A stretch of 36,511 bases of DNA from NCBI GenBank assembly GCA_017477465.1, contig JAFUVU010000043.1, positions 1-36,511 on the forward strand, read 5' to 3'. The stretch is from Bacteroidales bacterium (GTDB lineage Bacteria; Bacteroidota; Bacteroidia; Bacteroidales; UBA932). A program made the position numbers and the translations under genes. The notes below the pieces were generated by a model that was given only the letters and a program-made list of their open reading frames with translations, had not been told where the DNA came from and searched no databases. Shown piece by piece: positions 7,805 through 20,771 of the stretch (within the stretch, counting starts at the first letter, position 1; each line of letters begins with the position of its first letter).

Positions 7805-9154
7805 CTAGACCTCCTTTGCCTCTATGCAAAATACTGCGTATAGAGGCACTGATTTTATTTCATTCGCAAATCCGAAGTTTTTCCCGGAGATGCGGTAGGC
7901 GAAGGGGCAGTTGTAGGTTTTTTTGAAGTTGTTCAGGCTGATAGCGTCCACCTTACGACCCTTTTTGACTTCGACCGGAATTACATTTGCCCCGTCCTGC
8001 AAGACGTATTCGACTTCCTGCGTATTGTCGTTTTTCCAATATCGGAGCGTGATTCCATTAGCTCTCAGAGCTTGCCCTACGTAATTTTCGGCCACGGATC
8101 CGAGGAATGTATTATCAGTTTCGATAGAGTTCAGAAGCATCGGCACCGGCATCTGTGCTTTGGTGTTCAACAGGCCGATGTCTGACATGTATATTTTAAA
8201 GTCGCTGTCGTCTTCTTGTGCCGATATAGGGATGAATCCGTGAGAAATTAGCTTGCATTTATGTACAGTGCCTGAGAGAATAAGCCATTCGATGGCTTCT
8301 CCGAAGATTTTGGCCGTTCCGCCTTTCATGGCCAGTTTGTATTGGAACTTGCGATTCTCCTTGGCCAGTTGGGCGGGAATACTGTTGAAGCAAGCTCTTA
8401 TTTTGACAGTAGTGGCCGGTTTTGCGTATTTGGCCATATCGCCATTATATCCAACCAAAATCGATTGCTGTACTGTTCGGCATTCTAAATAGCTATTGGT
8501 ATCCACCCACTTCTGCACGCTTTCCGGCATTCCCCCAACTACAAGATACTTCTGATAGAGATCTAGCACCAGGGAGTGCACCGAAGCGGGCATGGCTTCA
8601 TTCGACAGAAAATGGGCACGTATCTCATGTGCCAAAATATCGTTGCCGGTAGCCCATAGGAACTCCTCAAAATCCATGGGGGAAAGGCTTAGTTCATCAA
8701 CTTTGCCCACAGGGTAAGAGAATTCCTCATTTTCTTCATTATTGTCCTCTTCCTCCGGTTTATTGCCTTGATTTATGGCTACGCCAAGAAGACTCCCCGC
8801 CGCAACAATATCATACTGCGGATAATCCTCCTGGAAATACTTCAATGCAAGAAGGGCCCGTTTGCAGTCTTGAATCTCGTCCAGGATAACCAGCGTTTCA
8901 TGTGGCAGGATACGCACGTTGTACAAGGCTTCAAGAAAGGCAATGATTTCCATAGGATTAATATTGCTTTTCAGGAAATTGCCCACATCCGGAACCAGGT
9001 CGAGACTTACCTTGACATAATTCTTATAATGCTCTTTTCCAAATTCTTCCAGAATATATGTCTTCCCAACCTGGCGCGCTCCTTGAAGAATAAGAGGCTT
9101 GTGCCCAGGCCGATTTTTCCAGTCAATTAAACGCTGTGTAATTTTTCTCTTCAT
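7805..9154 (-). CDS. AAA ATPase with C-terminal DUF4143
   Basis: 449 codons. The Walker A loop is LILQGARQVGKTYILEEF, with Walker B TLVILDEIQDCKRAL and sensor region YDIVAAGSLLGVAI. The C-terminal part carries the DUF4143 region and ends with a PD-(D/E)xK-like segment: LRYWKNDNTQEVEYVLQDGA, then VIPVEVKKG. This is the abundant 'ATP-binding protein, DUF4143' family of Bacteroidota, whose function is unestablished; nuclease-like C-termini and patchy distribution suggest a role in defence or mobile DNA. Length is close to family average. It stands alone, with dispersed repeats in the flanking DNA, and a stub of a relative lies at 1294. Confidence 0.85.
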   Translation of the reverse strand: MKRKITQRLIDWKNRPGHKPLILQGARQVGKTYILEEFGKEHYKNYVKVSLDLVPDVGNFLKSNINPMEIIAFLEALYNVRILPHETLVILDEIQDCKRALLALKYFQEDYPQYDIVAAGSLLGVAINQGNKPEEEDNNEENEEFSYPVGKVDELSLSPMDFEEFLWATGNDILAHEIRAHFLSNEAMPASVHSLVLDLYQKYLVVGGMPESVQKWVDTNSYLECRTVQQSILVGYNGDMAKYAKPATTVKIRACFNSIPAQLAKENRKFQYKLAMKGGTAKIFGEAIEWLILSGTVHKCKLISHGFIPISAQEDDSDFKIYMSDIGLLNTKAQMPVPMLLNSIETDNTFLGSVAENYVGQALRANGITLRYWKNDNTQEVEYVLQDGANVIPVEVKKGRKVDAISLNNFKKTYNCPFAYRISGKNFGFANEIKSVPLYAVFCIEAKEV

Positions 9155-9179
9155 AAAAATCCCTTTATCTATCCGGATA

Positions 9180-9187
9180 CAAATATA
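9180..9187 (-). promoter_or_regulatory. -7 promoter box (TATATTTG) of the first DUF4143 ATPase
   Basis: TATATTTG on the minus strand matches TAnnTTTG, 25 bp upstream of ATG 9154. No -33 TTG at standard spacing is seen. Confidence 0.55.
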
Positions 9188-9388
9188 AACAAATCATATG
9201 AAAAAGTAATATAAATTTTGATTTTTTCATAGTTTTTGATTAGATGATTTATTGAACCTCACAGCAAACCCTCCCAGTATTTTTGGCTTGAGTTCCCGCA
9301 TTTTTGACCTTTTTTGCGGGAACTGAGTGTTGGCTGAGTCCCGGGCAAAGAATCCATCTTATATTGTCGGCTATTAAAGTTATAGCTG

Positions 9389-9425
9389 TTACGCAAAATA
9401 GCTTAAAAAGTGTAATGCCAGGACC
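9389..9425 (+). repeat. Dispersed intergenic repeat, copy 1
   Basis: This 37-bp stretch (ending GTGTAATGCCAGGACC) matches 16630-16667 with only about four differences over 38 positions, although the two sites are 7 kb apart and in unrelated surroundings. In this copy the right half of the palindrome is replaced by other sequence. Confidence 0.6.
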
Positions 9426-9513
9426 GCATTCTTGCCATCTTTGCCCCAGACAACACCCCCTCCGTAGACTTCGACGACTGGGGGCCCACGCTGTTCTAGG
9501 GCGCGCTGTGGCG

Positions 9514-9547
9514 GGCCACCTGGGTGGCTGGCATCCCGCAAAAAAGG
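9514..9547 (+). repeat. Degenerate REP-like palindrome
   Basis: GCCACC/GGTGGC separated by TG forms a hairpin, followed by TGGCATCCCGCAAAAAA. The same order (GCACC, GGTGC, GGCATT, CGC-AAAA) occurs at 15792-15829 and 16655-16692, so this is probably a diverged copy of one element. Confidence 0.4.
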
Positions 9548-9554
9548 AAGGAAA

Positions 9555-9583
9555 CCGCCCCGTAGCGGGAGGTTGCGGGGCGG
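9555..9583 (-). terminator. Terminator of the LRR lipoprotein gene
   Basis: CCGCCCCG (9555-9562) pairs perfectly with CGGGGCGG (9576-9583). On the minus strand the hairpin is followed by TTTCCTTCCTTTTTT. It lies 23 bp beyond the stop of the LRR lipoprotein gene. Confidence 0.7.
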
Positions 9584-9605
9584 AGTGTTGGGTTTTAAGG
9601 CTTAG

Positions 9606-11738
9606 TTAGGGCATTTTTTGAATACAGTTCTGCTGGTGATAGTAATTCCACCCTGCACTGTTCAACCGGTAAGCAACTAATGACTCTTCAGGGACATAGA
9701 TGATGAACCCGGATGCATGTCCCACAAAGACATCACTCGCGTGGTTAGTAATGGAAGGTGGTGTGGTCGGATAACTATACACCGTTTTCAGATTCTCACA
9801 ATACGAAAAAGCATGGTTTCCTATTGATGTCACTTTATGCGGTATTTCAACGGTAACAAGAGAAGAGCAGTCCCGGAATGCGGAATTACCTATGGTTTCA
9901 AGATTGGAACTCGTGGGCCCACCTTTATACTCTATATCAGTCAGTGACGTACATCCCTCGAAGGCGGAAGCGCCGATGGAAGTGAACCAATAGTGGATTT
10001 CAATATGCTCCAGCGATGTGCACCCGGCAAAAGTATAGGGCTCTATACTTGATGCCTGCGCCGATAACAACGGGCTCAGGACTATCGACTTCAAGCTGGT
10101 GCAGTTTCGGAATGCGCCTTTTCCTACTGTTGTCCCGGGCGAAGTAGATACATTGTCAAGGGAAGAACAGCCTCTGAAAACATATTCCCCAATCGTATTG
10201 ATGTTGGCCAATGAAACAGACATAAGTGCAGTGCACCCCTCGAATGCACTATCTTCCAACGTTTTTATACTCGAGGGCAGGTCAATACCGTCCAGGGAAG
10301 TACAATTTTGGAATGTTCCCGAAGCTATCGATGTAAGACTGCAGGGAGATTCAAAATACACGTCCGTAAGAGCGGAGCAGGCAATGAATGCCTGACTTCC
10401 AATTTCCGTTACGCTGGACGGAATCTGGATACCATTAATGGAAGAACACCCCTCAAATGCCCTTTGTCCAATACTAGTCACTCCGGATGGAATGCTGAAG
10501 GTGTTCAGGGATGTACAGCCGGAGAATGTCTCAACTCCAATACTTGTAAGATGCTTGGGAAGATTCACCCTAGTCATGTTGGAGCAGTTATAGAAGTTGT
10601 TCCCCGATAATGAAGTCAGCCCGGTAAAATAATAAAGAAAGGAAGCATTCGTCAATTCAGTAAGACTATTGAACGAAATGTCATTTGTTATCTGCGCCGC
10701 TTCATACTTGCTGAGATAACCATTCCCATCCTTATCATTAGATCCCGTAAATACTCTGTTCCTCACCGACTCCGGCTGCCCCAGCAGCACATCCTCGTTG
10801 TCCGGATCTTTCAGGGTGACGGCTTTCGTGTAGCCCTTGCCCGGCACGATGACCTGTTTGTCGATGATGCCGCCGGTCAGGCCGTATTCCTTGTAGTCAT
10901 TTTCCATGCCGATCTGAATCTTCACCTCGTCGTATATGACGTCGTCATCCTCGATGCGCATGGACTTGTCGGCCAGGATGGCCAGATATGCCGTGCCGCT
11001 GGTGGAGTTGGAGGCGCGGAACGTGCCGCTGACGGTGGCGGCCTCATTTTCTCCGCCCCATCCAAGGCCCCAGTTGCTCGCCTTGGAGCGAATATGGTAA
11101 TCGTATGTGGCCGAGACCGTATAATCCCTCGCCAGATCGGATTCCTCCGACGGTACGGTCACGTTCATCTTGACATAGCTGTTCAGCATTCTGAAGGAGA
11201 ACTTCCTGGCCTCATACGTGGTCTCGCCATCATACATAATCGTACGGCTTACGAGGGCCTCGAGATCCGAATCAATAACGCCCTTGGAATAATCGACCGT
11301 AAGTCTTTTCGTGGAAGGATCGTATGTGAAAATCCCTGCAGAAACGCCCGCCTCAGGAATCAGCGATGCAAACAGTCTCTTTCCTGCCAGGTCGGCCTCG
11401 GTCTTACCTTCCGCAAGGGTCAGGTTGCCGCTGAAGGTAGCGGAGCGCTGGCCGGCCCCGGACTTAAGCGTAAGGATAGATGGCTGCACATAACCATTCA
11501 GAAACACCATCAGCTTGTCTCCGGCAGAGAAAACAATGTTGGCGGTGCTGCCGCCGCTCATCTCCACCTTGGTCTCGGTGGCACCGGCCTCGGCCGTGAA
11601 CGGGACTATGACCTGACCGCTTTCGCCGACAGCGGAGGACGGCTCGGTTCCTACTTCGGGTTTTGCAGTTTCCTTGGTGCAGGAAAACGCAAGTGCTGCC
11701 GCAAGAGGCAGTGCAAAAAGAAATGATTTAGATCTCAT
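9606..11738 (-). CDS. Fimbrillin-like lipoprotein with BspA-type leucine-rich repeats (module A, ON orientation)
   Basis: 710 codons from ATG 11738 (MRSKSFLFALPLAAALAFSC, lipobox AFSC); a GTG three codons upstream is the alternative. Residues about 35-315 look like the fimbrillin N-terminal fold: an ETKVEM segment and FSAGDKLMVFLNG. Residues 335-346 (DKDGNGYLSKYE) are a perfect 12-residue EF-hand calcium loop. From about 360 to 700 come BspA/LRR_5 repeats with the pattern IG..AF.GC.SL..I..PSSV. BspA-type repeats in oral and gut bacteria bind host or bacterial partners; here binding is inferred. It is preceded by the 50-codon ORF A (11-bp gap), whose promoter and ATG lie in the putative invertible segment. 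It has its own terminator at 9555-9583. Confidence 0.9.
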   Translation of the reverse strand: MRSKSFLFALPLAAALAFSCTKETAKPEVGTEPSSAVGESGQVIVPFTAEAGATETKVEMSGGSTANIVFSAGDKLMVFLNGYVQPSILTLKSGAGQRSATFSGNLTLAEGKTEADLAGKRLFASLIPEAGVSAGIFTYDPSTKRLTVDYSKGVIDSDLEALVSRTIMYDGETTYEARKFSFRMLNSYVKMNVTVPSEESDLARDYTVSATYDYHIRSKASNWGLGWGGENEAATVSGTFRASNSTSGTAYLAILADKSMRIEDDDVIYDEVKIQIGMENDYKEYGLTGGIIDKQVIVPGKGYTKAVTLKDPDNEDVLLGQPESVRNRVFTGSNDKDGNGYLSKYEAAQITNDISFNSLTELTNASFLYYFTGLTSLSGNNFYNCSNMTRVNLPKHLTSIGVETFSGCTSLNTFSIPSGVTSIGQRAFEGCSSINGIQIPSSVTEIGSQAFIACSALTDVYFESPCSLTSIASGTFQNCTSLDGIDLPSSIKTLEDSAFEGCTALMSVSLANINTIGEYVFRGCSSLDNVSTSPGTTVGKGAFRNCTSLKSIVLSPLLSAQASSIEPYTFAGCTSLEHIEIHYWFTSIGASAFEGCTSLTDIEYKGGPTSSNLETIGNSAFRDCSSLVTVEIPHKVTSIGNHAFSYCENLKTVYSYPTTPPSITNHASDVFVGHASGFIIYVPEESLVAYRLNSAGWNYYHQQNCIQKMP

Positions 11739-11749
11739 AGCCGTCACGA

Positions 11750-11902
11750 TTAAAAGGATGTACTGGTAATAGTCTCAAAGCTGAACCCGGGCAGTTCCCC
11801 GGTTCCAAATTCGTCGGTCGTCCCCGACACACAAATCACGCCCTCCGACCGCATTTGTATCACCTCAATTTCGGGTGAAAAATAACGTTCTTTTTCTTTC
11901 AT
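11750..11902 (-). CDS. Small leader-like ORF A, upstream of the LRR lipoprotein
   Basis: 50 codons from ATG 11902: MKEKERYFSPEIEVIQMRSE, then GVICVSG, then an acidic and Gly/Phe-rich tail ending STSF. It has no signal peptide and no membrane helix. The same architecture recurs in three other ORFs (13332-13472, 20616-20771, 35893-36042), always directly upstream of a fimbrillin-like lipoprotein. Shared features are Y(F/L)xP(E/L) near residue 7, E-G-V-(I/V)-C-x-S near residue 20-26, and a G/P/D/F-rich tail. The start at 11902 is supported by a promoter box at 11937-11944; the in-frame ATG at 11950 lies upstream of that box. The first twelve bases (ATGAAAGAAAAA) and the promoter belong to the putative invertible segment. 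The function is unknown; a translational-coupling peptide or a secreted partner are possibilities. Confidence 0.7.
   Translation of the reverse strand: MKEKERYFSPEIEVIQMRSEGVICVSGTTDEFGTGELPGFSFETITSTSF
11874..11890 (-). repeat. Left inverted repeat of the putative invertible segment
   Basis: On the minus strand this is GAACGTTATTTTTCACC, identical to the + strand at 13332-13348. It encodes codons 5-10 of small ORF A. Together with the preceding bases it forms the near-palindrome GAAAAAGAAC/GTTATTTTTC, which has one mismatch in 10 bp and a CG centre, the kind of dyad that serine recombinases use as a crossover site. Confidence 0.65.
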
Positions 11903-11936
11903 AAGCTTATAGTTTTTATACAAATTCTTCCCTTTA

Positions 11937-11944
11937 CAAAAATA
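11937..11944 (-). promoter_or_regulatory. -7 promoter box (TATTTTTG) of module A
   Basis: TATTTTTG on the minus strand matches TAnnTTTG, 34 bp upstream of ATG 11902. It lies within the putative invertible segment, between the AraC gene and ORF A. Confidence 0.55.
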
Positions 11945-11982
11945 TAGCATACGCGCGAAATTGTCCTTGTCAATTTCTTACA

Positions 11983-12522
11983 TTATTCGGCTTTCGGCTT
12001 ATTGTTTTCTATCAAGCCGTCTCGGTACTGGCCCGGAGAGCAGCCATAGATGCGTTTGAAAGCGTGGTTGAAACTACTGGCATCCTCGAAACCGCAATTC
12101 CTGCCTATCTCCTGAATATTCACGTCTTTTTGCATCAGGAGCATGCTTGCGGCTTTACGCATCTGCAGCGAAAGAATGTAATCTTTTGGGCTTATTCCGG
12201 CGGCATTCTGCAGGCGCCTGCGGAAGGTTTGGGTGCCCAGATTCATTCGCAGCGCAACTGAATCGACACTTATATCTCCAGCATCAATCGCCTCATTGAC
12301 ACGCGTTTGTACTTCTTTAAGGAAGAGATCATCAGGCGAAGTCGTTGTCTCTTCTTCGGGCTTAGTAGTTAGCAGAGCCAACTTTTCACGAAGGCGGGCG
12401 ATCTCTTGTTTCAGCGTATCTACCTCGGCCTCATGTTCCTTGCGGCTTCGACAAAGAAGCTGCCAGGCCCCGACTATCAAGACCAGATAAAGGATTACTA
12501 TGAGCGCCCAGTACATTGCCAT
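11983..12522 (-). CDS. Membrane-anchored AraC-family regulator
   Basis: 179 codons. Residues about 3-23 (MYWALIVILYLVLIVGAWQLL) are a single membrane helix. Residues about 27-55 (EHEAEVDTLKQEIARLREKL) form a likely coiled coil, and the C-terminal ~100 residues are an AraC helix-turn-helix domain: SVDSVALRMNLGTQTFRRRL, then DVNIQEIGRNCGFEDASSF and the signature FKRIYGCSPGQYR. This looks like the last part of a hybrid two-component or one-component sensor without its sensory domain, so it may act directly from the membrane or be tethered to a partner. It lies 81 bp upstream of ORF A and inside the putative invertible segment, so it would always precede whichever module is ON. Confidence 0.85.
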   Translation of the reverse strand: MAMYWALIVILYLVLIVGAWQLLCRSRKEHEAEVDTLKQEIARLREKLALLTTKPEEETTTSPDDLFLKEVQTRVNEAIDAGDISVDSVALRMNLGTQTFRRRLQNAAGISPKDYILSLQMRKAASMLLMQKDVNIQEIGRNCGFEDASSFNHAFKRIYGCSPGQYRDGLIENNKPKAE

Positions 12523-12599
12523 TTTTCTTTATCGCAAAAATGGCCTGTATTATGGACTTTTGGTTAATGATTTTTCAGTAATTTGCTCCCTCGATGCGC

Positions 12600-13214
12600 T
12601 TATTTGAGCAAATCCGGCATCTTTTCCCTTAAATACCGCAAGAGAGTGTTCTTGTCAACTCTGCATGCACGGGCTATCTTACGTTTTGACATACCGCTCC
12701 TCACAGAACGCCTGATGTACTTTTCCTTCCCGTACAGTTTATACTTCTCGGGACTGTTCCGCCGCCCCCTGGGTCGGCCCAACTTTATTCCTTCGGCCTT
12801 CTTCCTCGCAAGCGCTTCCTTGGTTCGCTGACTGATTAGCGTGCGCTCAATTTCGGCCGATAGTCCAAAAGCAAACGCCAGGACTTTGCTTTGGATATCC
12901 TCTCCGAGCCGATAGCCGTCCTTGATGGTCCACACCTTGCATTCCTTTTGCATGCACAGGTTCAGAATCTCCATAATCATGAAAAGGCTTCGGCCAAGGC
13001 GCGACAGCTCCGCGCAGATGATCAAGTCATCTTTCCGGCATCGCTTGAGAAGCCGGCCAAGCGCCCGCTTATTATAGTTCTTGGTGCCGCTTATGGTCTC
13101 CTCTATCCAGCCATCGACACCCAAACCCTCCCTGCTGCAGAAGTTGAGAATCTCGAAACGCTGATTTTCAACAGTTTGTTTATCCGAGCTTACTCGAACA
13201 TATCCGTAAATCAT
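12600..13214 (-). CDS. mpi: Mpi-type serine DNA invertase
   Basis: 204 codons. The resolvase/invertase catalytic domain starts MIYGYVRVSSDKQTVENQRF, with the nucleophile in RVS (Ser9), then ELSRLGRSLFMIMEILNLC with conserved arginines, and the helix FAFGLSAEIERTLISQRTKE. The C-terminal helix-turn-helix is SKRKIARACRVDKNTLLRYL. The wording closely follows Mpi, the Bacteroides fragilis invertase that flips several capsule promoters, and the length is typical. It lies between the two inverted repeats, the same arrangement as hin inside its own segment. It probably recombines sites in DNA by double-strand exchange at a 2-bp centre. Whether it acts on the flanking repeats, or on distant sites like Mpi, is not shown by the sequence. 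Confidence 0.9.
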   Translation of the reverse strand: MIYGYVRVSSDKQTVENQRFEILNFCSREGLGVDGWIEETISGTKNYNKRALGRLLKRCRKDDLIICAELSRLGRSLFMIMEILNLCMQKECKVWTIKDGYRLGEDIQSKVLAFAFGLSAEIERTLISQRTKEALARKKAEGIKLGRPRGRRNSPEKYKLYGKEKYIRRSVRSGMSKRKIARACRVDKNTLLRYLREKMPDLLK

Positions 13215-13241
13215 AATTACATTGGTTATAGGTTAACCCTG

Positions 13242-13249
13242 CAAAAATA
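13242..13249 (-). promoter_or_regulatory. -7 promoter box (TATTTTTG) of the invertase gene
   Basis: TATTTTTG on the minus strand matches TAnnTTTG, 27 bp upstream of the invertase ATG 13214. The invertase therefore has its own promoter within the segment. Confidence 0.55.
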
Positions 13250-13331
13250 CTAATGTCGGTACTGTGTAGTGTCGGCGTTATTTTAGCCGGCAGTCCGGTG
13301 AGTAAAACAGCCTCGAGGATGTAGAATTATT

Positions 13332-13348
13332 GAACGTTATTTTTCACC
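13332..13348 (+). repeat. Right inverted repeat of the putative invertible segment
   Basis: GAACGTTATTTTTCACC is identical to the minus strand at 11874-11890, and GAGGTGAT follows in both after seven unmatched bases. It encodes the first six visible codons of ORF B in the same reading frame as in ORF A. Confidence 0.65.
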
Positions 13349-13472
13349 TTTGATCGAGGTGATTTACGCTGCCCCGGAAGGGGTGGTGTGTGCCAGTGAA
13401 GTGGATGCTGACGGTTTGGGCGTCGGCAGTTATCCTAATCCGTTTGGAGACACAGAAGTACCTCTCTTTTAA
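13332..13472 (+). CDS. Small ORF B without a start codon (silent partner of module B)
   Basis: Forty-six sense codons in frame: ERYFSPLIEVIYAAPEGVVC, then ASEVDADG and a Gly/Pro tail ending VPLF and TAA. It is a clear relative of ORF A from its first codon, and the part of ORF A from the same Glu to its stop is also exactly 46 codons. In frame, back to the stop at 13299-13301, there is no ATG, GTG or TTG start, and no TAnnTTTG box lies upstream on this strand. I infer that the missing MKEK start and promoter sit at the far end of the 11891-13331 segment. Decay of a duplicated ORF is the alternative. The lipoprotein gene starts 12 bp after its stop. Confidence 0.65.
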   Translation, partial: ERYFSPLIEVIYAAPEGVVCASEVDADGLGVGSYPNPFGDTEVPLF

Positions 13473-13484
13473 AAAATGCAAATT

Positions 13485-14447
13485 ATGAAAAAGTATATAC
13501 TTCTTTTCTGCATCGCTGCATTTGCTTTTGCCTGCAGCAAACCCGAAAACCTGGAGCCGATGGCTCCCGTATCGGAAGATGAGATCTTACTGGAAGTGGA
13601 TTTCACCGTAACGGATGGTACGCCCGATGTAAAAGGCATCAAGAAAGCCTGGGCCAACAATGACGTCATCTATGTGTTCTTTAACGGGGACTACTATTAT
13701 CACGGTTATTTAAAGATTAAGTACAATAATAGTCAGAAGAAATGGTTGGTAGATTCCTGGGAGGGAGATGCCCAATCAGTCGTGGCGGCCACAACCTCGG
13801 GAATCCTCAGCGCAGTTTATGCTCCGATAGATAAAATTGGCGGATATATAGACAGGACATCGGGCCTCAGCTATAAAACGGCCAAAGGCACATCTTATTT
13901 GGGTTTATACCTCATAGCCGAAAAAGCCCCGTATACTGTTTCAAACGGGAAACTGACGGCGACCATCAACATGGTCCCTCACGAAGAAAAGATGGTCCAG
14001 TTTTATATGGAGCCCAAACATCGGGACGGGAGCACTATTTATGATACCTATGCTTCTAATGAGGAGAATAATCAGGAAATTAATCGCTTTACCCTGCAAG
14101 TAAAAAAGAATGCAAATTCTGCAGTGGCGTTCCAGAATCCATATCGACTCTCTTCCCTTCTCGATGACGGATCGTTTCAATTTTCTAATTCCGGAGCCCT
14201 GTACAACTATGTTGACCCGTACTATTACGGAGGTCTGTGCTTTGCTCTTACGGACTTTTCAGTCAACACCGGGGTCGAGGCCATTCTGATTAGACTGAAC
14301 GACTCAAAAACTAATAAAAGCTACGATTTTACCCTCCAGCTCTCCAGCGCCTCCTGGTGGAACAACAAAGCATATTCCGCCTTCAAACTTCCCGCTCTCA
14401 ACCAAAAAGATAGCTCGGACAATTATTACTGGAAAGAGAATAATTAG
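13485..14447 (+). CDS. Fimbrillin-like lipoprotein (module B, probably OFF orientation)
   Basis: 320 codons from ATG 13485, MKKYILLFCIAAFAFACSK, with lipobox FACS; an ATG three codons upstream is possible. The mature part begins with strands like those of the other fimbrillin-like lipoproteins (EILLEVDFTVTDGTPDV, KAWANNDVIYVFFNGDYYYH), where 'W...D.I.VFF' corresponds to the W-GD-I segment of that fold. I see no extra C-terminal domain, so it is the shortest of the four modules. It might be a fimbrial subunit or a surface lipoprotein. Its small ORF B lacks a start and no promoter is seen, so it is probably silent in this orientation. It ends in a strong hairpin shared with the convergent ATPase gene. 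Confidence 0.75.
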   Translation: MKKYILLFCIAAFAFACSKPENLEPMAPVSEDEILLEVDFTVTDGTPDVKGIKKAWANNDVIYVFFNGDYYYHGYLKIKYNNSQKKWLVDSWEGDAQSVVAATTSGILSAVYAPIDKIGGYIDRTSGLSYKTAKGTSYLGLYLIAEKAPYTVSNGKLTATINMVPHEEKMVQFYMEPKHRDGSTIYDTYASNEENNQEINRFTLQVKKNANSAVAFQNPYRLSSLLDDGSFQFSNSGALYNYVDPYYYGGLCFALTDFSVNTGVEAILIRLNDSKTNKSYDFTLQLSSASWWNNKAYSAFKLPALNQKDSSDNYYWKENN

Positions 14448-14469
14448 TCGTTGATTATCAGCCATTTAC

Positions 14470-14506
14470 AATAATCTCCTGCGGCCCAAAACCGCAGGAG
14501 ATTATT
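14470..14506. terminator. Bidirectional terminator hairpin
   Basis: AATAATCTCCTGCGG (14470-14484) and CCGCAGGAGATTATT (14492-14506) form a perfect 15-bp stem with a 7-base loop, between converging genes ending at 14447 and 14505. The right arm overlaps the ATPase stop codon. Confidence 0.85.
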
Positions 14507-15695
14507 ATTTAAAAAGGGTCATCGGATCGATGCTGAGGAAATCTTCCGCCTGCATCCCGCCTTCTCCCACGACAAGGGCAAGGTAGGGCTGGTATTGGGC
14601 TTTGAACTGGGCGAGCCCTTTATTGCCGGGGCTGTCATTGCTTTTTACTTCGATGGCGACCACACGACCTTTTTTCTCCAGCACATAGTCTACCTCGCAG
14701 CCTGGGTTTGTCCTCCAATAATACACCATGTAATCACCGGCATAGGCGTAGCTCATAATGTGTGCGCCGATGGCGGACTCGAACAATCGGCCCCACAAAG
14801 GGCGGTCCTGGACTGCTTCCGGGAAAGGCTTCTCGCAGTAGATGCTCTTCAAAGCATTGTTGTATACCTGATGCTTGGGCACGCTGTTTTTCTTCCGGGC
14901 CAAATCTACGGCATACTTGTTCAGACCACAGACGAGGCCTGCCTGGGAAAGAAGATTCAGATAACCGGTGATGGTTGTCGTGTTGCCCGCATCCTGCATC
15001 TGGCCGATCATCTTGGTAAGGGACAGTTCCTTTCCGGAATAGGCTGCCGACAGTTCAAAAGCCTGTCGGAGCAGGGCCGGCTTGGCGATTTTCTCATTCA
15101 CAAGGATGTCCTTGTTGATGGTCGCATCTAATATAGAGCCGGTTATGTAATCCCGCCAGCGGTCTTCGTCGCCGATGAGTTCCGCAGCGCCGGGATATGC
15201 GCCATAGTATACATACTGGTCCAGGGTGAAGCCGAAGGCGTCCCTCATCTCGGAGAAGGACCAGTGGGAGAGGATGATCCGTTCAAATCGGCCTTGTAGG
15301 CTGTCGGAGAGCCCTTTGTCCAGCATTACGCGGGACGACCCCAGAAGAATAACTTTGAGATTGACATCGTTGAAAGTGTCGGTGTCCCATTCTTTTTTCA
15401 CCACCTCGCTCCAGCCGGTGATTTTCTGGATTTCGTCGATAACCAGGATAAGCTCCTTAAGACCCTGGACTCGCATTTTTGCACGGGCCGCTTCCCAGCA
15501 GTCGCTGACCCAGTTGAGCTGGGTGGCGGGGACTGCATCTGCAGGATAAAAGACAAAAGGAATTCCTAATGCGTTTACTACCTGTTTCATCAGGGTGGAT
15601 TTGCCAACCTGACGAGGGCCGGTAATCACTTGGATAAAACGCCTTTTCTCCTGCATCCTGGAGAATAAAGTATAGTATTGTTTCCTCTGATACAT
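14505..15695 (-). CDS. AAA ATPase with C-terminal DUF4143 (second copy)
   Basis: 396 codons. Walker A is VITGPRQVGKSTLMKQVVN, Walker B ELILVIDEIQKITGWSEVV, and the sensor segment KVILLGSSRVML. The DUF4143 region follows, with DRPLWGRLFESAIGAHI and the nuclease-like GCEVDYVLEKKGRVVAIEVK. It belongs to the same broad family as 7805-9154 but to another branch, with a different N-terminus (MYQRKQYYTLFSRMQEKRRF) and little shared sequence outside the motifs. Its function is not established. A promoter lies at 15739-15769. It is a single gene, convergent with module B. Confidence 0.85.
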   Translation of the reverse strand: MYQRKQYYTLFSRMQEKRRFIQVITGPRQVGKSTLMKQVVNALGIPFVFYPADAVPATQLNWVSDCWEAARAKMRVQGLKELILVIDEIQKITGWSEVVKKEWDTDTFNDVNLKVILLGSSRVMLDKGLSDSLQGRFERIILSHWSFSEMRDAFGFTLDQYVYYGAYPGAAELIGDEDRWRDYITGSILDATINKDILVNEKIAKPALLRQAFELSAAYSGKELSLTKMIGQMQDAGNTTTITGYLNLLSQAGLVCGLNKYAVDLARKKNSVPKHQVYNNALKSIYCEKPFPEAVQDRPLWGRLFESAIGAHIMSYAYAGDYMVYYWRTNPGCEVDYVLEKKGRVVAIEVKSNDSPGNKGLAQFKAQYQPYLALVVGEGGMQAEDFLSIDPMTLFK

Positions 15696-15738
15696 AGCAA
15701 GTTATCTTAGAATTTCCAATTTTACTCAATGTACTGCG

Positions 15739-15769
15739 CAAAATTACTCAATGAATTTGGGATTTGCAA
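15739..15769 (-). promoter_or_regulatory. Promoter of the second DUF4143 ATPase
   Basis: On the minus strand TAATTTTG (15739-15746) matches TAnnTTTG, with TTG (15767-15769) 20 bp upstream. The box is 43 bp before ATG 15695. Confidence 0.6.
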
Positions 15770-15791
15770 ATCTTATAAGACAATCCTCCGT

Positions 15792-15829
15792 AATGCCGGC
15801 CACCCGGGTGCCTCGCATTCTGCAAAATC
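15792..15829 (+). repeat. Degenerate REP-like palindrome next to a small-ORF fragment
   Basis: AATGCCGGCCACC, CG, GGTGCCTCGCATT, then CTGCAAAAT: the same layout as the hairpin at 16655-16692 with several mismatches between arms. It ends immediately before the third copy of GAACGTYATTTTTCACC. Confidence 0.45.
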
Positions 15830-15871
15830 GAACGTCATTTTTCACCCGAAATTGAGCGTTGGCACAAATAG
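15830..15871 (+). pseudogene. 5' fragment of a third small ORF of the A/B type
   Basis: GAACGTCATTTTTCACC (15830-15846) and the next ten bases match ORF A (minus strand 11864-11890) at 26 of 27 positions. In frame it reads ERHFSPEIERWHK and stops at TAG (15869-15871). There is no start codon; the sequence before it is the REP-like palindrome. No lipoprotein gene follows, the next gene being the unrelated DUF6935 protein. It has the orientation of ORF B and is inverted relative to ORF A. I infer a leftover recombination site or a deleted third module. Confidence 0.55.
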
Positions 15872-15925
15872 TGAATATTTAACGTTGTCATGGGAGCCCA
15901 AACATCCAATCGAGACAGTAAGTTC

Positions 15926-15956
15926 TTGCATTTTTCTGAGAAAGCAGTTACCTTTG
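15926..15956 (+). promoter_or_regulatory. Promoter of the DUF6935 gene
   Basis: TACCTTTG (15949-15956) matches TAnnTTTG, with TTG (15926-15928) 20 bp upstream. The ATG at 15982 follows 25 bp after the box. Confidence 0.6.
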
Positions 15957-15981
15957 AATGCTAACCTTTTAACTTACTTAT

Positions 15982-16596
15982 ATGGGCATTCTTAACAGCA
16001 TTATCTCAAATGTTGTCCGCTCTATCGCCGGGAAGGAAATCATGAAGAATATTCCGGGCATGGACAAGTTGGACGAACTTAAGAAAAACGTGGGCTGCAA
16101 CACGCAGACTTATACTTTCGAATCTCTGCCTGCAAACGTGGAGGAACTGAAAAAGCTGCCGGAAGCGGCTCTGTACGATGTATATGCAGTGGCCGCACTG
16201 TCGGTGCTCGCACTCACGCGCTTCGAAGCGGACCGCGAGGCTTCGATAGCCATGCTCAACTATCTCAAAGGACCGGAGCCCATGTCGAACATGGATATTT
16301 CCATGATATCGGACCGCTTCATGGACGGAAAGTTCTACAAGGTGAATTCTTTCTTCGATGGCGCCACGCCGCAAAACTATTACACTCCTGACAAGCCTTA
16401 CAAAATCAAAGTCACTTCCAACCCTTATTCCTTTGAAAACGAGAACTGGGCCAATCTTTTCCTGACTTCCGGCGGGGCCGACAATCCCCGTCAGGTAAGG
16501 CTTCGCATGAAACCCAGCACCGGCCAGTGGTTCCTTGTGGAGATACAGTACCTGGGCGATATCCGTCCTCCGGTAGTTGCCGACAAGTGGGCATGA
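15982..16596 (+). CDS. DUF6935-type conserved protein
   Basis: 204 codons, soluble, without signal peptide. Typical stretches are TYTFESLPANVEELKKLPEA, YAVAALSVLALTRF, AMLNYLKGPEPMSN, SDRFMDGKFYKVNSFFDGAT, and the C-terminal FLTSGGADNPRQVRLRMK with STGQWFLVE. I recognise this as the DUF6935 family of Firmicutes and Bacteroidota from memory; no function is established. The Gly-rich start (MGILNSIISNVVRSIAGKE) resembles tails that associate with a membrane or scaffold, but this is weak. It has its own promoter and ends ahead of the REP-like hairpin. Confidence 0.7.
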   Translation: MGILNSIISNVVRSIAGKEIMKNIPGMDKLDELKKNVGCNTQTYTFESLPANVEELKKLPEAALYDVYAVAALSVLALTRFEADREASIAMLNYLKGPEPMSNMDISMISDRFMDGKFYKVNSFFDGATPQNYYTPDKPYKIKVTSNPYSFENENWANLFLTSGGADNPRQVRLRMKPSTGQWFLVEIQYLGDIRPPVVADKWA

Positions 16597-16722: not shown

Positions 16723-19700
16723 CTACAGCTGCTTCACGGCCCTCATCGGGCAGGACAGTTCTGCCTTGCCTATTGCATTGTTCACGTTGAAGGTCTGGCC
16801 GTCGTACGCGGCAACGTAGGCGTTATCGCCTTCTTCCGTGGCCGTCCACAACATGAAGTAGTACCCTTCTCCCTGGCGGCCGTATTCGCTGTAATCCATA
16901 CCCGTCATGGGGAAGAAGAGATGCTTTCCGTTGTGCGTGCTTGTCAAGAGCAGTCCTTTGACACCGTTGTAAATCAGAATCGAATGAACACACTCGGCAA
17001 TAAGTTCTTCAAACTGCGCCTTGGTAGGAGTCTGCCAGCCTTCATTTGGTACGATGTCGGCCCAATTGGTGAATGTACCATAAATCTCCGGCGAGGTTGC
17101 TCCCGTATTGCAGTTGGCCCAAATGAGCCCGGAAGGAAGACCCAAGTCCACAGTTGCCGATGTCTCCAGAACCAGTTGATTCACAGTTACCGTGCAGGTG
17201 GCTGTGAAGTTGCCGTCGGCCGATGTTACGGTTATCACGGCCGTACCGGCAGACACGCCCGTAACCTGCCCGTAATCGTCTACTGTGGCCACGTCCGGGT
17301 TGGAACTGCTCCAGTTCACCTGCTGATTGGTTGCATTTGAGGGAGTGAAAATCGGATAAAGAGAGAATACCTGGCCCTCATACACGGTGTTTTCCGTTAT
17401 TGCGAGGGCAATGCTTTCAACCGCAGTGGGTGCATTCACCGTAACAGGCAGCACAGCCGATATGCCGGAGCCGTCATCCGCGGCGAATGTTATGGAAGCG
17501 GTTCCCGGGGCTACGGCTGTAATCGTATAATATTTTCCCTGCAGGAAGCTGTATTGGTTGCTTACGGTGACAATACTTTCATCAGATGAACTTACTGTCA
17601 TATTCTGATTCGCGGCACCGGCGGGCAGCACCTTATAGGTATATGGCCTTGTCGTAGCCACAACCCCGTCGTAATAATCGGCTTTCTGGCCGGGATCCAG
17701 CGTCAGGCTTGCAGGATTGAGCTGAATCTCTTCGACTTTCACATCCTCCTCAACAGTAACATGGCACATGGCCGTAAAGTTGCCGTCGGCAGTTGTTGCC
17801 TGGATATATGCCTGACCGGCTTTTACTGCCTTGAACCACTGAGCGTACATCATGCCGGTTTCTTCCATCTCAATGACGTCCTTGCCGGTGATGACCTCAA
17901 AGGTAACATTCTTATTGCTTGCGTCCTGGGGCTGCACTTCGGCGCTCAGATACAGTTCTTCTCCAACCTTCAGCGTGGCTGTCGTCTTGTTCAGCTCAAC
18001 GCCGGTCACCGGGATGGGATTCACGGTCACCGTACAGGTTGCCGTAAAGGAACCGTCTGTGGTTGTGACGGTTATCACGGTCTCTCCGGGCTTTTTAGCC
18101 GTTACCAGACCGTTTTCGTCAACTGTAGCCACGGTAGTTTTGCTGCTGGTCCAGGTGACGGACTTGTCGGCGGCGTTGTCAGGAGTTACGACAGCGCTCA
18201 GCTGCACGGTCTCGCCGGGATCGACCGCTGCCTGGGACGGTTCGATGCTTACGCCTGTCACTGCGACAGGAAGAGGTTCCGCATTCTCGTCAAAGGGCAC
18301 GAGAACAATCTCGTATTTTCTCATCAATTCACTTCCCCCTGAGATGCCGTAGTAGTCGAAACTGCTTTTGTAGGTCAGGGATGAGCCGATGAAGCAGCCG
18401 ATAAGACAGCCTCCTGAGCTTGTTCCAGTGTAAGATGCGTCGCCCATGCAAAGCACTCCGACTTTATTCGTGCTTCCTTCTGAATCGGCATCGCAGACTA
18501 TATGAATTACGTCATCTACATAAAACACATCCCATTCGCACCAGGTGTCCGGCTCCAGAGGATTGAGACGTACGACACCAAACTTGTTGTACGCGATAAA
18601 TTGATTGAGGTCGCTCATGTTGCTGCCCTTTCTCAAATAACGCTTAATCTCTTTCCCTTCCGCATCAAGGCCGAAGTTGACGTAGATATAATATTTGTTG
18701 CTGCCTTCAATGGGCTCGAAATTGAACAGCGTAGCAAGCATGCCCTGGCTGGTGGGAGTAAGCATCTTTGATGCCGTAGGCTGATCGCCTGTCTCCAGTG
18801 AGAAGGTATAGGGCGTGATGATTTCTTCGCTGTCAACGCGTCTGTCAATATAGGTTGAATACCAGTAATCTTCACCTTCCGATACCATCCAGTACTTTCC
18901 GGGGGCCAGCTTCTTGAATCGCTTAACCCTTATTGTCAGCGACTTGGAGCTATTCAGCGGGTCGCTTATTACAACATCGGCATCTACTGCGCTTCCCGTT
19001 ACCTCCAGAGGCGCTGCGGTGACATTTATGCGGGTGCACCATAGTCCGTTCCGGTCTTTGAAAAGCTCCGAAGTCCAGCTGACGGAGGGGTCGTCACAGG
19101 TAATATCGGGAGTGAAATTGCACACAAGTTCGGAGCTGTCTTCTCCGCCGAACCAAGGCATATATGCAGTCCATGTCTGCCCCACATTGCGGAAATCGCG
19201 TTTGAACTGGCTGATGTAAACATACTGGCTAAGAGTTCCAGCCCTGACTTCTATGGAGCCGCTGCGGGTACCTATGCCGTAAGCCGAAGCATAGCTTGTC
19301 TCGTATGTGGGATTCGCATCATACTGGAGGGTGATTTTCCCGGTAGCAGGGTCGAGCGTGGCCGTAGCCCAATCGCAGTATGAGGCATCGACGGTCACTT
19401 CGGAGATGTCTCCCGTGTAGTCAACATCCAGCGTCAGAGTACCGGCATCCGGCGAGAAGTAGGGGTCGATAGACAGTCCGGAATTGGAACTGCTCGTTTG
19501 CTCCTGCCCGTTGGAATCGACATAAGTATAGCTGAGGGTCAGTTCCGGGGCCTTTTCCATGGCCACTGAGAACTCGGTAATCCTGCCGTTTTCGAACCTG
19601 ATGGCGGCGTTCTTGGCAGCAAGGTCAACGTTTTTGACATAGCTGTGTTCAGAGCCGATGTAAGACTCATTTGCCATGTCGTACTGCATTGTAGATACTT

Positions 19701-20616
19701 CGACGCCCAGCTTTTGGTCAATCTTGCCGGCAGGAACGCGCAGCCATACATCCACCTTGCCCTCACTGTCCACGAAAATATCGCTGGAGGAACATTCAAA
19801 GCTGAGGCTTGGCTGGACATAAGTTTCCGGACCACCGACCGGAATCATTCCTTCGCCTCCCTGATTTAAATTAACTTGCCTCACCAAACCGCGCTCGAGG
19901 TCAAATTCAAGCGGAGCATCCACGGCATAGTCACTGTCCAGATACAATCTTCCGGACACAAGCTTTTCGCCGGCCGGAAGGCCCGTGAGAGTCATCTTCA
20001 CCGTACCGCCGATTCGGCCGAAATTAAGGGAAATGTTGTTTTCGGCACGGGCGTCAAGAGCCATCGGCTGCGAGACTATGAAGTCGGCCTGCGGGTCAAA
20101 ACTTGTAGCTGTAGGCTGCTGCCAGGTGGAAAAATAGAAGTTAAGCACCGGATGCACCGGGAGGGCTGCTTCGGAGTCGGACCAGGTCTCGGAATAATAT
20201 TCTTCGTCGGACCAGTAGTAGGAAACCTGCGCAGGCGAAATCGCCACATAGCGGTATTTTCCTGCCGACGGATTGCTCAGCTGGGTACTAAGATCCACGG
20301 TAAAAGTCGCGGTCTCGGCGTCGGCAGTCAGTCCCTCGGAATAAAATTCGCTGCAGTCTGTAGCGTTTTCCGCTTCCGAACCGTGATTTTCGTACACATA
20401 TTCCAGCAGGGCGATATTGTCCCCCTCCTTCCATTTGAAGCGGTAGCCATCCTCGTCATTACCTGAAATCTCGGTTTTGGTCTCGAGGACCCGGACTTCA
20501 ATCACACGTCCTTTTGCCGATGGAACAGGCTCTTTATCAAGACCGTTTTCTTCTTTCTTGGCGCAAGAAAAAAGCGCAGCGGCCGATGCCGCAAAAAGCA
20601 AAATATACTTTTTCAT
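16723..20616 (-). CDS. Giant fimbrillin-like lipoprotein with BACON-like, four Big_2 and Fibrobacter-type domains (module C)
   Basis: 1297 codons. The signal peptide MKKYILLFAASAAALFSCAK has lipobox LFSC. Residues about 35-345 are fimbrillin-like (VLETKTEISGN, FKWKEGDNIALLEYV). Residues about 350-475 resemble a BACON domain (CDWATATLDPATGKITLQYD). Residues about 783-1147 hold four Ig-like Big_2 units (PDNAADKSVTWTSS, PGETVITVTTTDGSFTATC; PSNATNQQVNWSSSNPDVAT). Residues 1152-1297 form the DUF1566/Fibrobacter-type domain (VDLGLPSGLIWANCNTGATS, EGWQTPTKAQFEEL), as in 3024-4040. It is probably a surface adhesin or carbohydrate-binding scaffold; no catalytic motif is seen. Its ATG overlaps the stop of small ORF C (TGATG), so translation is coupled. 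Confidence 0.85.
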   Translation of the reverse strand: MKKYILLFAASAAALFSCAKKEENGLDKEPVPSAKGRVIEVRVLETKTEISGNDEDGYRFKWKEGDNIALLEYVYENHGSEAENATDCSEFYSEGLTADAETATFTVDLSTQLSNPSAGKYRYVAISPAQVSYYWSDEEYYSETWSDSEAALPVHPVLNFYFSTWQQPTATSFDPQADFIVSQPMALDARAENNISLNFGRIGGTVKMTLTGLPAGEKLVSGRLYLDSDYAVDAPLEFDLERGLVRQVNLNQGGEGMIPVGGPETYVQPSLSFECSSSDIFVDSEGKVDVWLRVPAGKIDQKLGVEVSTMQYDMANESYIGSEHSYVKNVDLAAKNAAIRFENGRITEFSVAMEKAPELTLSYTYVDSNGQEQTSSSNSGLSIDPYFSPDAGTLTLDVDYTGDISEVTVDASYCDWATATLDPATGKITLQYDANPTYETSYASAYGIGTRSGSIEVRAGTLSQYVYISQFKRDFRNVGQTWTAYMPWFGGEDSSELVCNFTPDITCDDPSVSWTSELFKDRNGLWCTRINVTAAPLEVTGSAVDADVVISDPLNSSKSLTIRVKRFKKLAPGKYWMVSEGEDYWYSTYIDRRVDSEEIITPYTFSLETGDQPTASKMLTPTSQGMLATLFNFEPIEGSNKYYIYVNFGLDAEGKEIKRYLRKGSNMSDLNQFIAYNKFGVVRLNPLEPDTWCEWDVFYVDDVIHIVCDADSEGSTNKVGVLCMGDASYTGTSSGGCLIGCFIGSSLTYKSSFDYYGISGGSELMRKYEIVLVPFDENAEPLPVAVTGVSIEPSQAAVDPGETVQLSAVVTPDNAADKSVTWTSSKTTVATVDENGLVTAKKPGETVITVTTTDGSFTATCTVTVNPIPVTGVELNKTTATLKVGEELYLSAEVQPQDASNKNVTFEVITGKDVIEMEETGMMYAQWFKAVKAGQAYIQATTADGNFTAMCHVTVEEDVKVEEIQLNPASLTLDPGQKADYYDGVVATTRPYTYKVLPAGAANQNMTVSSSDESIVTVSNQYSFLQGKYYTITAVAPGTASITFAADDGSGISAVLPVTVNAPTAVESIALAITENTVYEGQVFSLYPIFTPSNATNQQVNWSSSNPDVATVDDYGQVTGVSAGTAVITVTSADGNFTATCTVTVNQLVLETSATVDLGLPSGLIWANCNTGATSPEIYGTFTNWADIVPNEGWQTPTKAQFEELIAECVHSILIYNGVKGLLLTSTHNGKHLFFPMTGMDYSEYGRQGEGYYFMLWTATEEGDNAYVAAYDGQTFNVNNAIGKAELSCPMRAVKQL

Positions 20617-20771
20617 CAGAACGATCCTCCCTGAATAATGTCGTCATTTTTGATGGGGTCGCCGGCGCTGCCTTCGGTACTGCTGAAGTTAAGCGCACTG
20701 CCACAGACTACGCCTTCACCTTGAAAGGTGAAAGCCTGCGTCTCCGGTTTAAAGTAAGGTAAGTATTGCAT
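20616..20771 (-). CDS. Small leader-like ORF C, upstream of the giant lipoprotein
   Basis: 51 codons from ATG 20771: MQYLPYFKPETQAFTFQGEG, then VVCGSALNF and an acidic tail ending QGGSF. It shares with ORFs A, B and D the YF.PE start, the EGVVCxS core and the Gly/Asp tail, but hardly any nucleotide identity, so it is a diverged paralog. Its TGA overlaps the lipoprotein ATG. An in-frame ATG at 20801 is excluded because a TAnnTTTG box lies at 20799-20806. Confidence 0.65.
   Translation of the reverse strand: MQYLPYFKPETQAFTFQGEGVVCGSALNFSSTEGSAGDPIKNDDIIQGGSF

What the first reader, a model, noticed from the sequence alone, without database searches (positions are those of the whole stretch)
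11874..13348. Putative flip-flop switch: Mpi-type invertase inside a segment that carries the only promoter and start codon for two opposed lipoprotein modules
The 17-bp sequence GAACGTTATTTTTCACC lies inverted at 11874-11890 (minus) and 13332-13348 (plus), each inside a small ORF of one family and in the same codon register. Between them lie the Mpi-type serine invertase and a membrane AraC regulator. The left ORF A has its promoter and ATGAAAGAAAAA inside the segment. The right ORF B has neither an in-frame ATG nor a TAnnTTTG box. Inversion would give ORF B those first four codons in frame, making a 50-codon ORF, the same length as A. It would turn on the lipoprotein at 13485 and turn off the LRR lipoprotein at 9606. 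Regulator and invertase would always precede the active module. Invertible promoters controlled by Mpi are known for capsule genes; switching a start codon between two lipoproteins is inferred here and I do not know of a description.
Basis: partly seen in the sequence, partly recalled or inferred. Interest (0 to 1): 0.92.

Follow-up and report, generated by a model that had tools for sequence, protein, structure and literature searches.

The report
Flippable start for two surface lipoproteins
A gut bacterium seems to carry a DNA segment that flips around and lends its promoter and start codon first to one surface-lipoprotein gene set and then to the opposite one, a new arrangement of a known kind of surface switch.

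Summary
The 17-bp sequence lies inverted at 11874-11890 and 13332-13348 around an Mpi-family serine invertase and an AraC regulator. Leader ORF A has its promoter box and ATG inside the segment; leader ORF B has neither. A virtual flip gives B a 50-codon ORF and beheads A.

Relatives support a switch. In 400 same-genus genomes the exact 16-bp core occurs 7 times in 4 species, each time in a leader ORF. In two of those species (G098, G246) one copy is headless and the other starts at base 1 of its contig, the break expected where both orientations coexist. G430 has an opposed headed/headless pair around a 62%-identical AraC, but no invertase between them. Many invertase relatives sit beside inverted restriction-gene modules with similar sites.

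Against: no inverted junction was seen for this species, and its own contig crosses both sites unbroken. No head-bearing segment was found in G098 or G246.

The swapped start is that of a leader ORF; both lipoproteins keep their own ATG. Verdict: probable promoter-plus-head flip-flop, a new variant of a known kind.

The parts
11874..11890 (-). left crossover site (17 bp), in codons 5-10 of leader ORF A
   Evidence: exact inverted match
13332..13348 (+). right crossover site (17 bp), at the open 5' edge of leader ORF B
   Evidence: exact inverted match
11750..11902 (-). leader ORF A, 50 aa, headed (ATG inside the segment)
   Evidence: reading
13332..13472 (+). leader ORF B body, headless (no in-frame ATG)
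11937..11973 (-). probable promoter of module A: TTGACAAG, 21 bp, TATTTTTG
   Evidence: box at 11944; same layout ahead of headed leaders in G253 and G430
11983..12522 (-). AraC-type regulator with hydrophobic N-terminus
   Evidence: HTH_18 E=6e-22; N-terminus by eye
12600..13214 (-). Mpi-family serine invertase
   Evidence: NF009949 327 bits, cut-off 272; only match in the own genome
13242..13249 (-). TAnnTTTG box ahead of the invertase
9606..11738 (-). lipoprotein A with BspA-type leucine-rich repeats
   Evidence: LRR_5 E=1.6e-68 (scanned from 11729)
13485..14447 (+). lipoprotein B, 320 aa, no Pfam or NCBIfam match
   Evidence: 33% identical to the G246 C9 lipoprotein
15830..15846 (+). third, one-mismatch site in a remnant leader ORF

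Best explanation
The Mpi-family invertase recombines the two 17-bp sites and inverts the segment between them. The segment carries the invertase, the AraC regulator, a promoter and the first four codons (ATGAAAGAAAAA) of a leader ORF. In the present orientation leader A and the LRR lipoprotein behind it are expressed and module B is silent. After a flip the same promoter and head fuse in frame to leader B and drive lipoprotein B, while A is beheaded. Invertase and regulator always read toward the active module. Shown: the sites, their register, the headed and headless states, and recurrence in relatives, with contig starts exactly at the site. Inferred: that recombination happens in this species, that this invertase does it, that the promoter works, that lipoprotein expression follows orientation, and that the leader ORF matters for translation of the gene behind it.
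For: Exact inverted 17-mers in one codon register; the flip yields a 50-aa ORF B and a headless A. The exact 16-bp core: 7 matches in 4 of 400 genus genomes, all 7 in leader ORFs. G098 and G246: one headless copy each, and the other copy at base 1 of its contig; chance per site about 3-5 in 100,000 with rounded contig counts. G098: invertase start 32 bp from the headless leader. G430: opposed headed/headless modules around a 62% AraC. Promoter and head have the same layout in the window, G253 and G430. Of 32 non-site leader rows, 31 have an in-frame Met within 12 residues and 1 is cut by a contig edge. Restriction-type relatives of the invertase have short inverted sites GAGCGTTTTCGTGCAGCA (18 bp, L115) and TGAGCGTTTTTGTGGAGCA (19 bp, L098); on their matrix the window sites rank 25, 55 and 127 of 72,988.
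Against: The window is one unbroken contig through both sites, so only one orientation is seen here. No head-bearing copy of the site was found in G098 or G246, no close AraC there, and G246's one Mpi-like invertase (63%) lies at another locus. G430 has no invertase in its segment, one mismatch in each site, and only a 43% Mpi-like protein elsewhere. No invertase was found in G253 or G418 (G253 is 67% complete). The matrix ranks are good but not top. Part of the 17-mer, TATTTTTCACC, is also kept in a non-switch leader of G200.
Confidence: 0.75

Rival explanations
1. A relic: the segment once flipped, but this copy is locked, and B is a silent module that will decay.
For: The own contig shows one orientation without a break. 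G430 and G253 carry the AraC and head without a nearby invertase, and decayed sites exist at window 15830 and in G461, so locked forms occur.
Against: The invertase is intact and above its family cut-off, both sites are exact, and the body of ORF B is open to its stop.
Confidence: 0.13
2. Coding homology only: two paralogous leader ORFs share codons for ERYFSP, and B has merely lost its start.
For: The leader family is genus-wide (83 of 151 genomes at E<=0.1) and a non-switch member in G200 keeps TATTTTTCACC.
Against: Inside the repeat all five full codons match, beyond it 4 of 9 identical residues do. The exact core is confined to 4 of 400 genomes, three of them with two exact copies. Two contigs begin exactly at it.
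Confidence: 0.06
3. A three-site system: the copy at 15830 also recombines, inverting or deleting a larger piece that includes lipoprotein B.
For: The third site has one mismatch, and its 32-nt arm is 91% complementary to that of site A. It has the same orientation as site B.
Against: Its ORF stops after 13 codons and the gene downstream is a DUF6935 protein, not a lipoprotein. It ranks lower on the site matrix (127th).
Confidence: 0.05

Closest known systems
Mpi-controlled invertible promoters of Bacteroides fragilis (PMC4747536 and PMC8375218, passages)
   Same: Same invertase family; surface genes; the reported repeat ARACGTTCGTN shares the ACGTT core with the window site.
   Different: There one master invertase flips promoters at many places. 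Here the segment is 1.4 kb, carries the invertase and a regulator, and the site lies inside coding sequence.
Hin-type switch of Salmonella (PMC5903667 passage; details recalled)
   Same: Serine invertase encoded inside the segment that it flips, with a promoter on it.
   Different: Hin joins a promoter to one operon; here promoter and start codon serve two opposed modules.
vsa lipoprotein system of Mycoplasma pulmonis (PMC2268961 passage)
   Same: Inversion places promoter, ribosome-binding site and a coding head in front of a silent surface-lipoprotein gene.
   Different: There 714 nt of the lipoprotein gene itself are moved. Here only four codons of a separate leader ORF are. Its recombinase family differs (recalled).
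Mpi-type invertases beside type IIG restriction genes with inverted specificity modules (seen here)
   Same: Nearest invertases by tree path; short inverted sites within coding sequence.
   Different: They appear to exchange TaqI_C-type specificity modules, not lipoprotein leaders, and the invertase lies beside the inverted part.
Intragenic invertons (Chanin et al.; seen only as a reference in PMC11868660)
   Same: Crossover inside an open reading frame.
   Different: Here the inversion would alternate the 5' head between two opposed genes rather than recode one gene.

Membership tests
Mpi-family master DNA invertase (NF009949) | score above the curated cut-off | tested here: met
   327 bits against 272, residues 1-199
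Mpi-family master DNA invertase (NF009949) | inversion activity | not testable with these tools
   needs reads or an assay
B. fragilis-type Mpi inverton | repeat ARACGTTCGTN | tested here: inconclusive
   by eye 7 of the first 10 positions fit GAACGTTATT; consensus from a passage of PMC8375218
B. fragilis-type Mpi inverton | short segment with a promoter only, between genes | tested here: not met
   segment of 1475 bp with two genes; sites inside ORFs
Hin/Gin-type switch | invertase gene inside the inverted segment | tested here: met
   12600-13214 lies between the sites
Hin/Gin-type switch | enhancer bound by Fis (recalled) | not tested
   no search made
vsa-type head swapping | one promoter-plus-start moved between silent coding bodies | tested here: met
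   in silico flip only
vsa-type head swapping | moved head is part of the lipoprotein gene itself | tested here: not met
   head belongs to a separate 50-aa leader ORF; lipoproteins start at 11738 and 13485

The most novel reading that the evidence does not exclude
A recurrent, self-contained leader-head switch of this gut genus. An invertible cassette of invertase, membrane-anchored AraC regulator, promoter and start codon docks in frame onto the leader ORFs of opposed lipoprotein modules, the leader ORF acting as the docking adaptor. The cassette has spread among species and to different lipoprotein pairs, and has sometimes lost its invertase (G430, G253), perhaps then being flipped in trans or locked.
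Probability: 0.3. Interest if true: 0.75.

Novelty: new variant of a known kind. Interest (0 to 1): 0.62.

Why it matters
If true, one flip exchanges two unrelated surface lipoproteins and re-aims a regulator at the one that is on, and with only these two sites exactly one of the two leaders is headed. It extends Mpi-type inversion from capsule promoters to in-frame start switching in Bacteroidales, and gives a 16-17 bp tag with which metagenomic reads can be scored for surface state. It also suggests a role for an abundant, unnamed leader-ORF family ahead of surface lipoproteins. Phase-variable surface lipoproteins affect phage resistance in Bacteroides (PMC12548429, passages), so the trait may be under phage or host pressure.

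Tried and rejected
Rfam at gathering thresholds on 9000-16500: no match. Structure of lipoprotein B from its single sequence: mean pLDDT 32.6, not usable, so no fold search was made. ERYFSP-type sites next to the invertase in relatives: my script's regex found no such leader ORF with a usable start or register among the 109 loci L036-L144, only scattered motif matches; repeats found near invertases there were of other kinds. Site elsewhere in the family: among 329 genomes (many of them same-genus) only the window's own has the exact core. Phage records: only the resolvase/invertase gene of Bacteroides phage B124-14, 71% over 29% of the query, in two records; I took this as no sign that the segment is a phage element. 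Invertase tree: nearest rows by path are restriction-type, but deep support is poor and the bootstrap had not settled. The relative closest by identity, G009:C76 (87% over 159 residues), ends inside the gene, so its context is unknown. G230: invertase near two same-direction lipoproteins with like N-termini, no clear inverted pair.

Full report
WHAT IS THERE. The window is one whole contig (C4, 36,511 bases) of a 2.4-Mb genome of 82.5% completeness. No call named the organism; its nearest named invertase hits are mostly Bacteroidales gut and rumen assemblies. The 17-mer GAACGTTATTTTTCACC lies at 11874-11890 (-) and 13332-13348 (+), with a one-mismatch copy at 15830-15846 (+); at up to 3 mismatches 0.07 matches are expected and 3 found. 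Between the first two, both on the minus strand, lie an Mpi-family invertase (327 bits, cut-off 272) and an AraC-type regulator whose N-terminus is hydrophobic by eye. To the left, reading left, are leader ORF A (50 aa) and a lipoprotein with BspA-type leucine-rich repeats. To the right, reading right, are the body of leader ORF B and a 320-aa lipoprotein without Pfam or NCBIfam match.

HEADED AND HEADLESS. ORF A begins ATGAAAGAAAAA just inside the segment, behind TTGACAAG - 21 bp - TATTTTTG. ORF B has no Met in the 30 codons before the site, an in-frame TGA with 10 codons between, and no TAnnTTTG on its strand in 13000-13490. That box is the Bacteroides -7 consensus according to a passage of PMC4747536. 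A virtual inversion gives B the ORF MKEKERYFSPLIEVIYAAPEGVVCASEVDADGLGVGSYPNPFGDTEVPLF (50 aa) and leaves A without a start. The lipoproteins have their own ATGs at 11738 and 13485, so the flip moves their promoter and the leader's start, not their own start codons.

CODING HOMOLOGY AS A RIVAL. The repeat encodes ERYFSP, and the leader ORF is a genus-wide family: 83 of 151 genomes have a match at E<=0.1. A non-switch member in G200 keeps TATTTTTCACC. Against homology alone: inside the repeat all five full codons match, plus the first two bases of the sixth, while beyond it 4 of 9 identical residues share the codon. In 400 genus genomes the exact 16-bp core occurs 7 times in 4 species, all 7 in leader ORFs. 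At up to one mismatch there are 23 matches in 16 genomes, 13 in leader ORFs or their remnants and 10 elsewhere; the pattern read backwards, a control, gives 7. In 329 genomes drawn from the family, many of them of the same genus, only the window's own has the exact core.

RELATIVES. Of the 13 site-bearing leader ORFs or remnants, 4 are headed (window A, G430 right, two in G253). Seven have no in-frame ATG (window B, window 15830, G246 C9, G098 C26, G430 left, G461, G418), and 2 are cut at the site by the contig edge (G098 C74, G246 C41). Of 32 other family rows, 31 have an in-frame Met within 12 residues upstream and 1 is cut by a contig edge. That scan needs the motif, so it would miss decayed copies, and some rows are near-duplicates. 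In G098 C26 a stop lies two codons before the site and an invertase starts 32 bp upstream, divergently; the contig ends inside that invertase. G246 C9 carries the nearest relative of module B (leader 62%, lipoprotein 33%), also headless, and its contig ends 83 bp past the site. In both genomes the other copy is at base 1 of its contig. An assembler stops there if two different sequences precede the same suffix, as in a population holding both orientations. The chance of such an edge is about 3 to 5 in 100,000 per site, from rounded contig counts. Against this: no head-bearing copy of the site was found in either genome, no close AraC, and G246's only Mpi-like invertase lies at a different locus, so the missing segments were not seen. 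G430 has a headless leader plus lipoprotein and a headed leader plus lipoprotein facing away from an AraC gene 62% identical to the window's, but no invertase between them; each of its sites has one mismatch, and its best Mpi-like protein elsewhere is 43% identical. G253 has AraC (48%) ahead of a headed leader, and no invertase was found in that 67%-complete genome. Promoter and head have the same layout in the window, G253 and G430.

WHAT THE INVERTASE'S KIN DO. A scan kept the best 80 of 549 named relatives. In 49 of the 80 a GAGCG-type match lies between 15 bases before and 60 after the end of the aligned invertase; 7 of these 49 contigs end 14-26 bp after the start of that site. Over all 80, contigs end within 500 bp of the 3' side in 31 and of the 5' side in 3. 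The gene behind the site has a TaqI_C domain in L130, the one of the 49 tested; a same-genus locus outside the 49 (L200) has Eco57I and TaqI_C. I read these as type IIG restriction genes with inverted specificity modules. The short exact repeats there are 18 bp (GAGCGTTTTCGTGCAGCA, L115) and 19 bp (L098). Of 57 sites 52 were kept, 27 distinct; their matrix ranks the window sites 25th, 55th and 127th of 72,988 positions, supportive but not decisive. The tree puts restriction-type rows nearest by path, with poor deep support, and leaves out the truncated relative G009 (87% over 159 residues, context unknown). In G019 an invertase 61% identical sits beside a 29-nt inverted repeat (90%) around 136 bp, ahead of a complete leader ORF and lipoprotein, so the genus also has what looks like a classical invertible promoter for the same kind of module.

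KNOWN AND NEW. B. [quoted passage not shown] Fimbrillin genes and restriction-specificity genes are reported near or across invertons in gut bacteria (PMC11892184 passages). Mycoplasma pulmonis vsa moves promoter, ribosome-binding site and 714 nt of coding sequence (PMC2268961 passage). So head-swapping and Mpi inversion are each known. Searches for intragenic invertons, for start-codon or lipoprotein switching in Bacteroidales, and for Mpi with type IIG enzymes listed no paper whose title or abstract start describes this architecture; most of those papers were seen only as listings. Novelty: a new variant of a known kind.

LIMITS. No read or second assembly of this species was available. Promoter activity, translation and recombination are inferred. 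The relatives are fragmentary assemblies, and the contig-edge argument is indirect.

Noticed in passing
15825-15856: Third copy of the site in a remnant leader ORF (ERHFSPEIERWHK, then stop), same orientation as site B; similar headless remnants occur in G461.
   Followed up: partly
11750-11902; 20688-20759; genus-wide: Unnamed leader-ORF family with a Y..P...EG..C.S core ahead of surface lipoproteins; the two window members scanned have no Pfam or NCBIfam match. A weak further match at 20688-20759 (-) precedes the large lipoprotein gene 16723-20616.
   Followed up: partly
L065-L144: Mpi-type invertases beside restriction-like genes with inverted specificity modules, mostly in Bacteroidales and also in records labelled Akkermansia, Kiritimatiellae, Ottowia and Parasutterella; contigs often end just 3' of the invertase.
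   Followed up: partly
L202 (G019:C24): Mpi-type invertase between two opposed SusC-like genes that share 42 identical bases before and 89 after the start: perhaps the same flip-flop layout with other cargo. Loci L046, L051, L057-L061, L063 and L064 also have inverted repeats on both sides of the invertase.
   Followed up: partly
L185 3898-6305 (G019:C15): Invertase, 29-nt inverted repeat around 136 bp, then a complete leader ORF and lipoprotein: looks like a classical invertible promoter for the same kind of module.
   Followed up: partly
L187 5067-5340 (G045:C8): Only the N-terminus of the AraC relative (matching residues 1-53) stands directly ahead of a leader ORF and two lipoprotein modules.
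   Followed up: no
7805-9154 and 14505-15695: Two AAA_14/DUF4143 ATPase genes bracket the switch region; no role was worked out.
   Followed up: no
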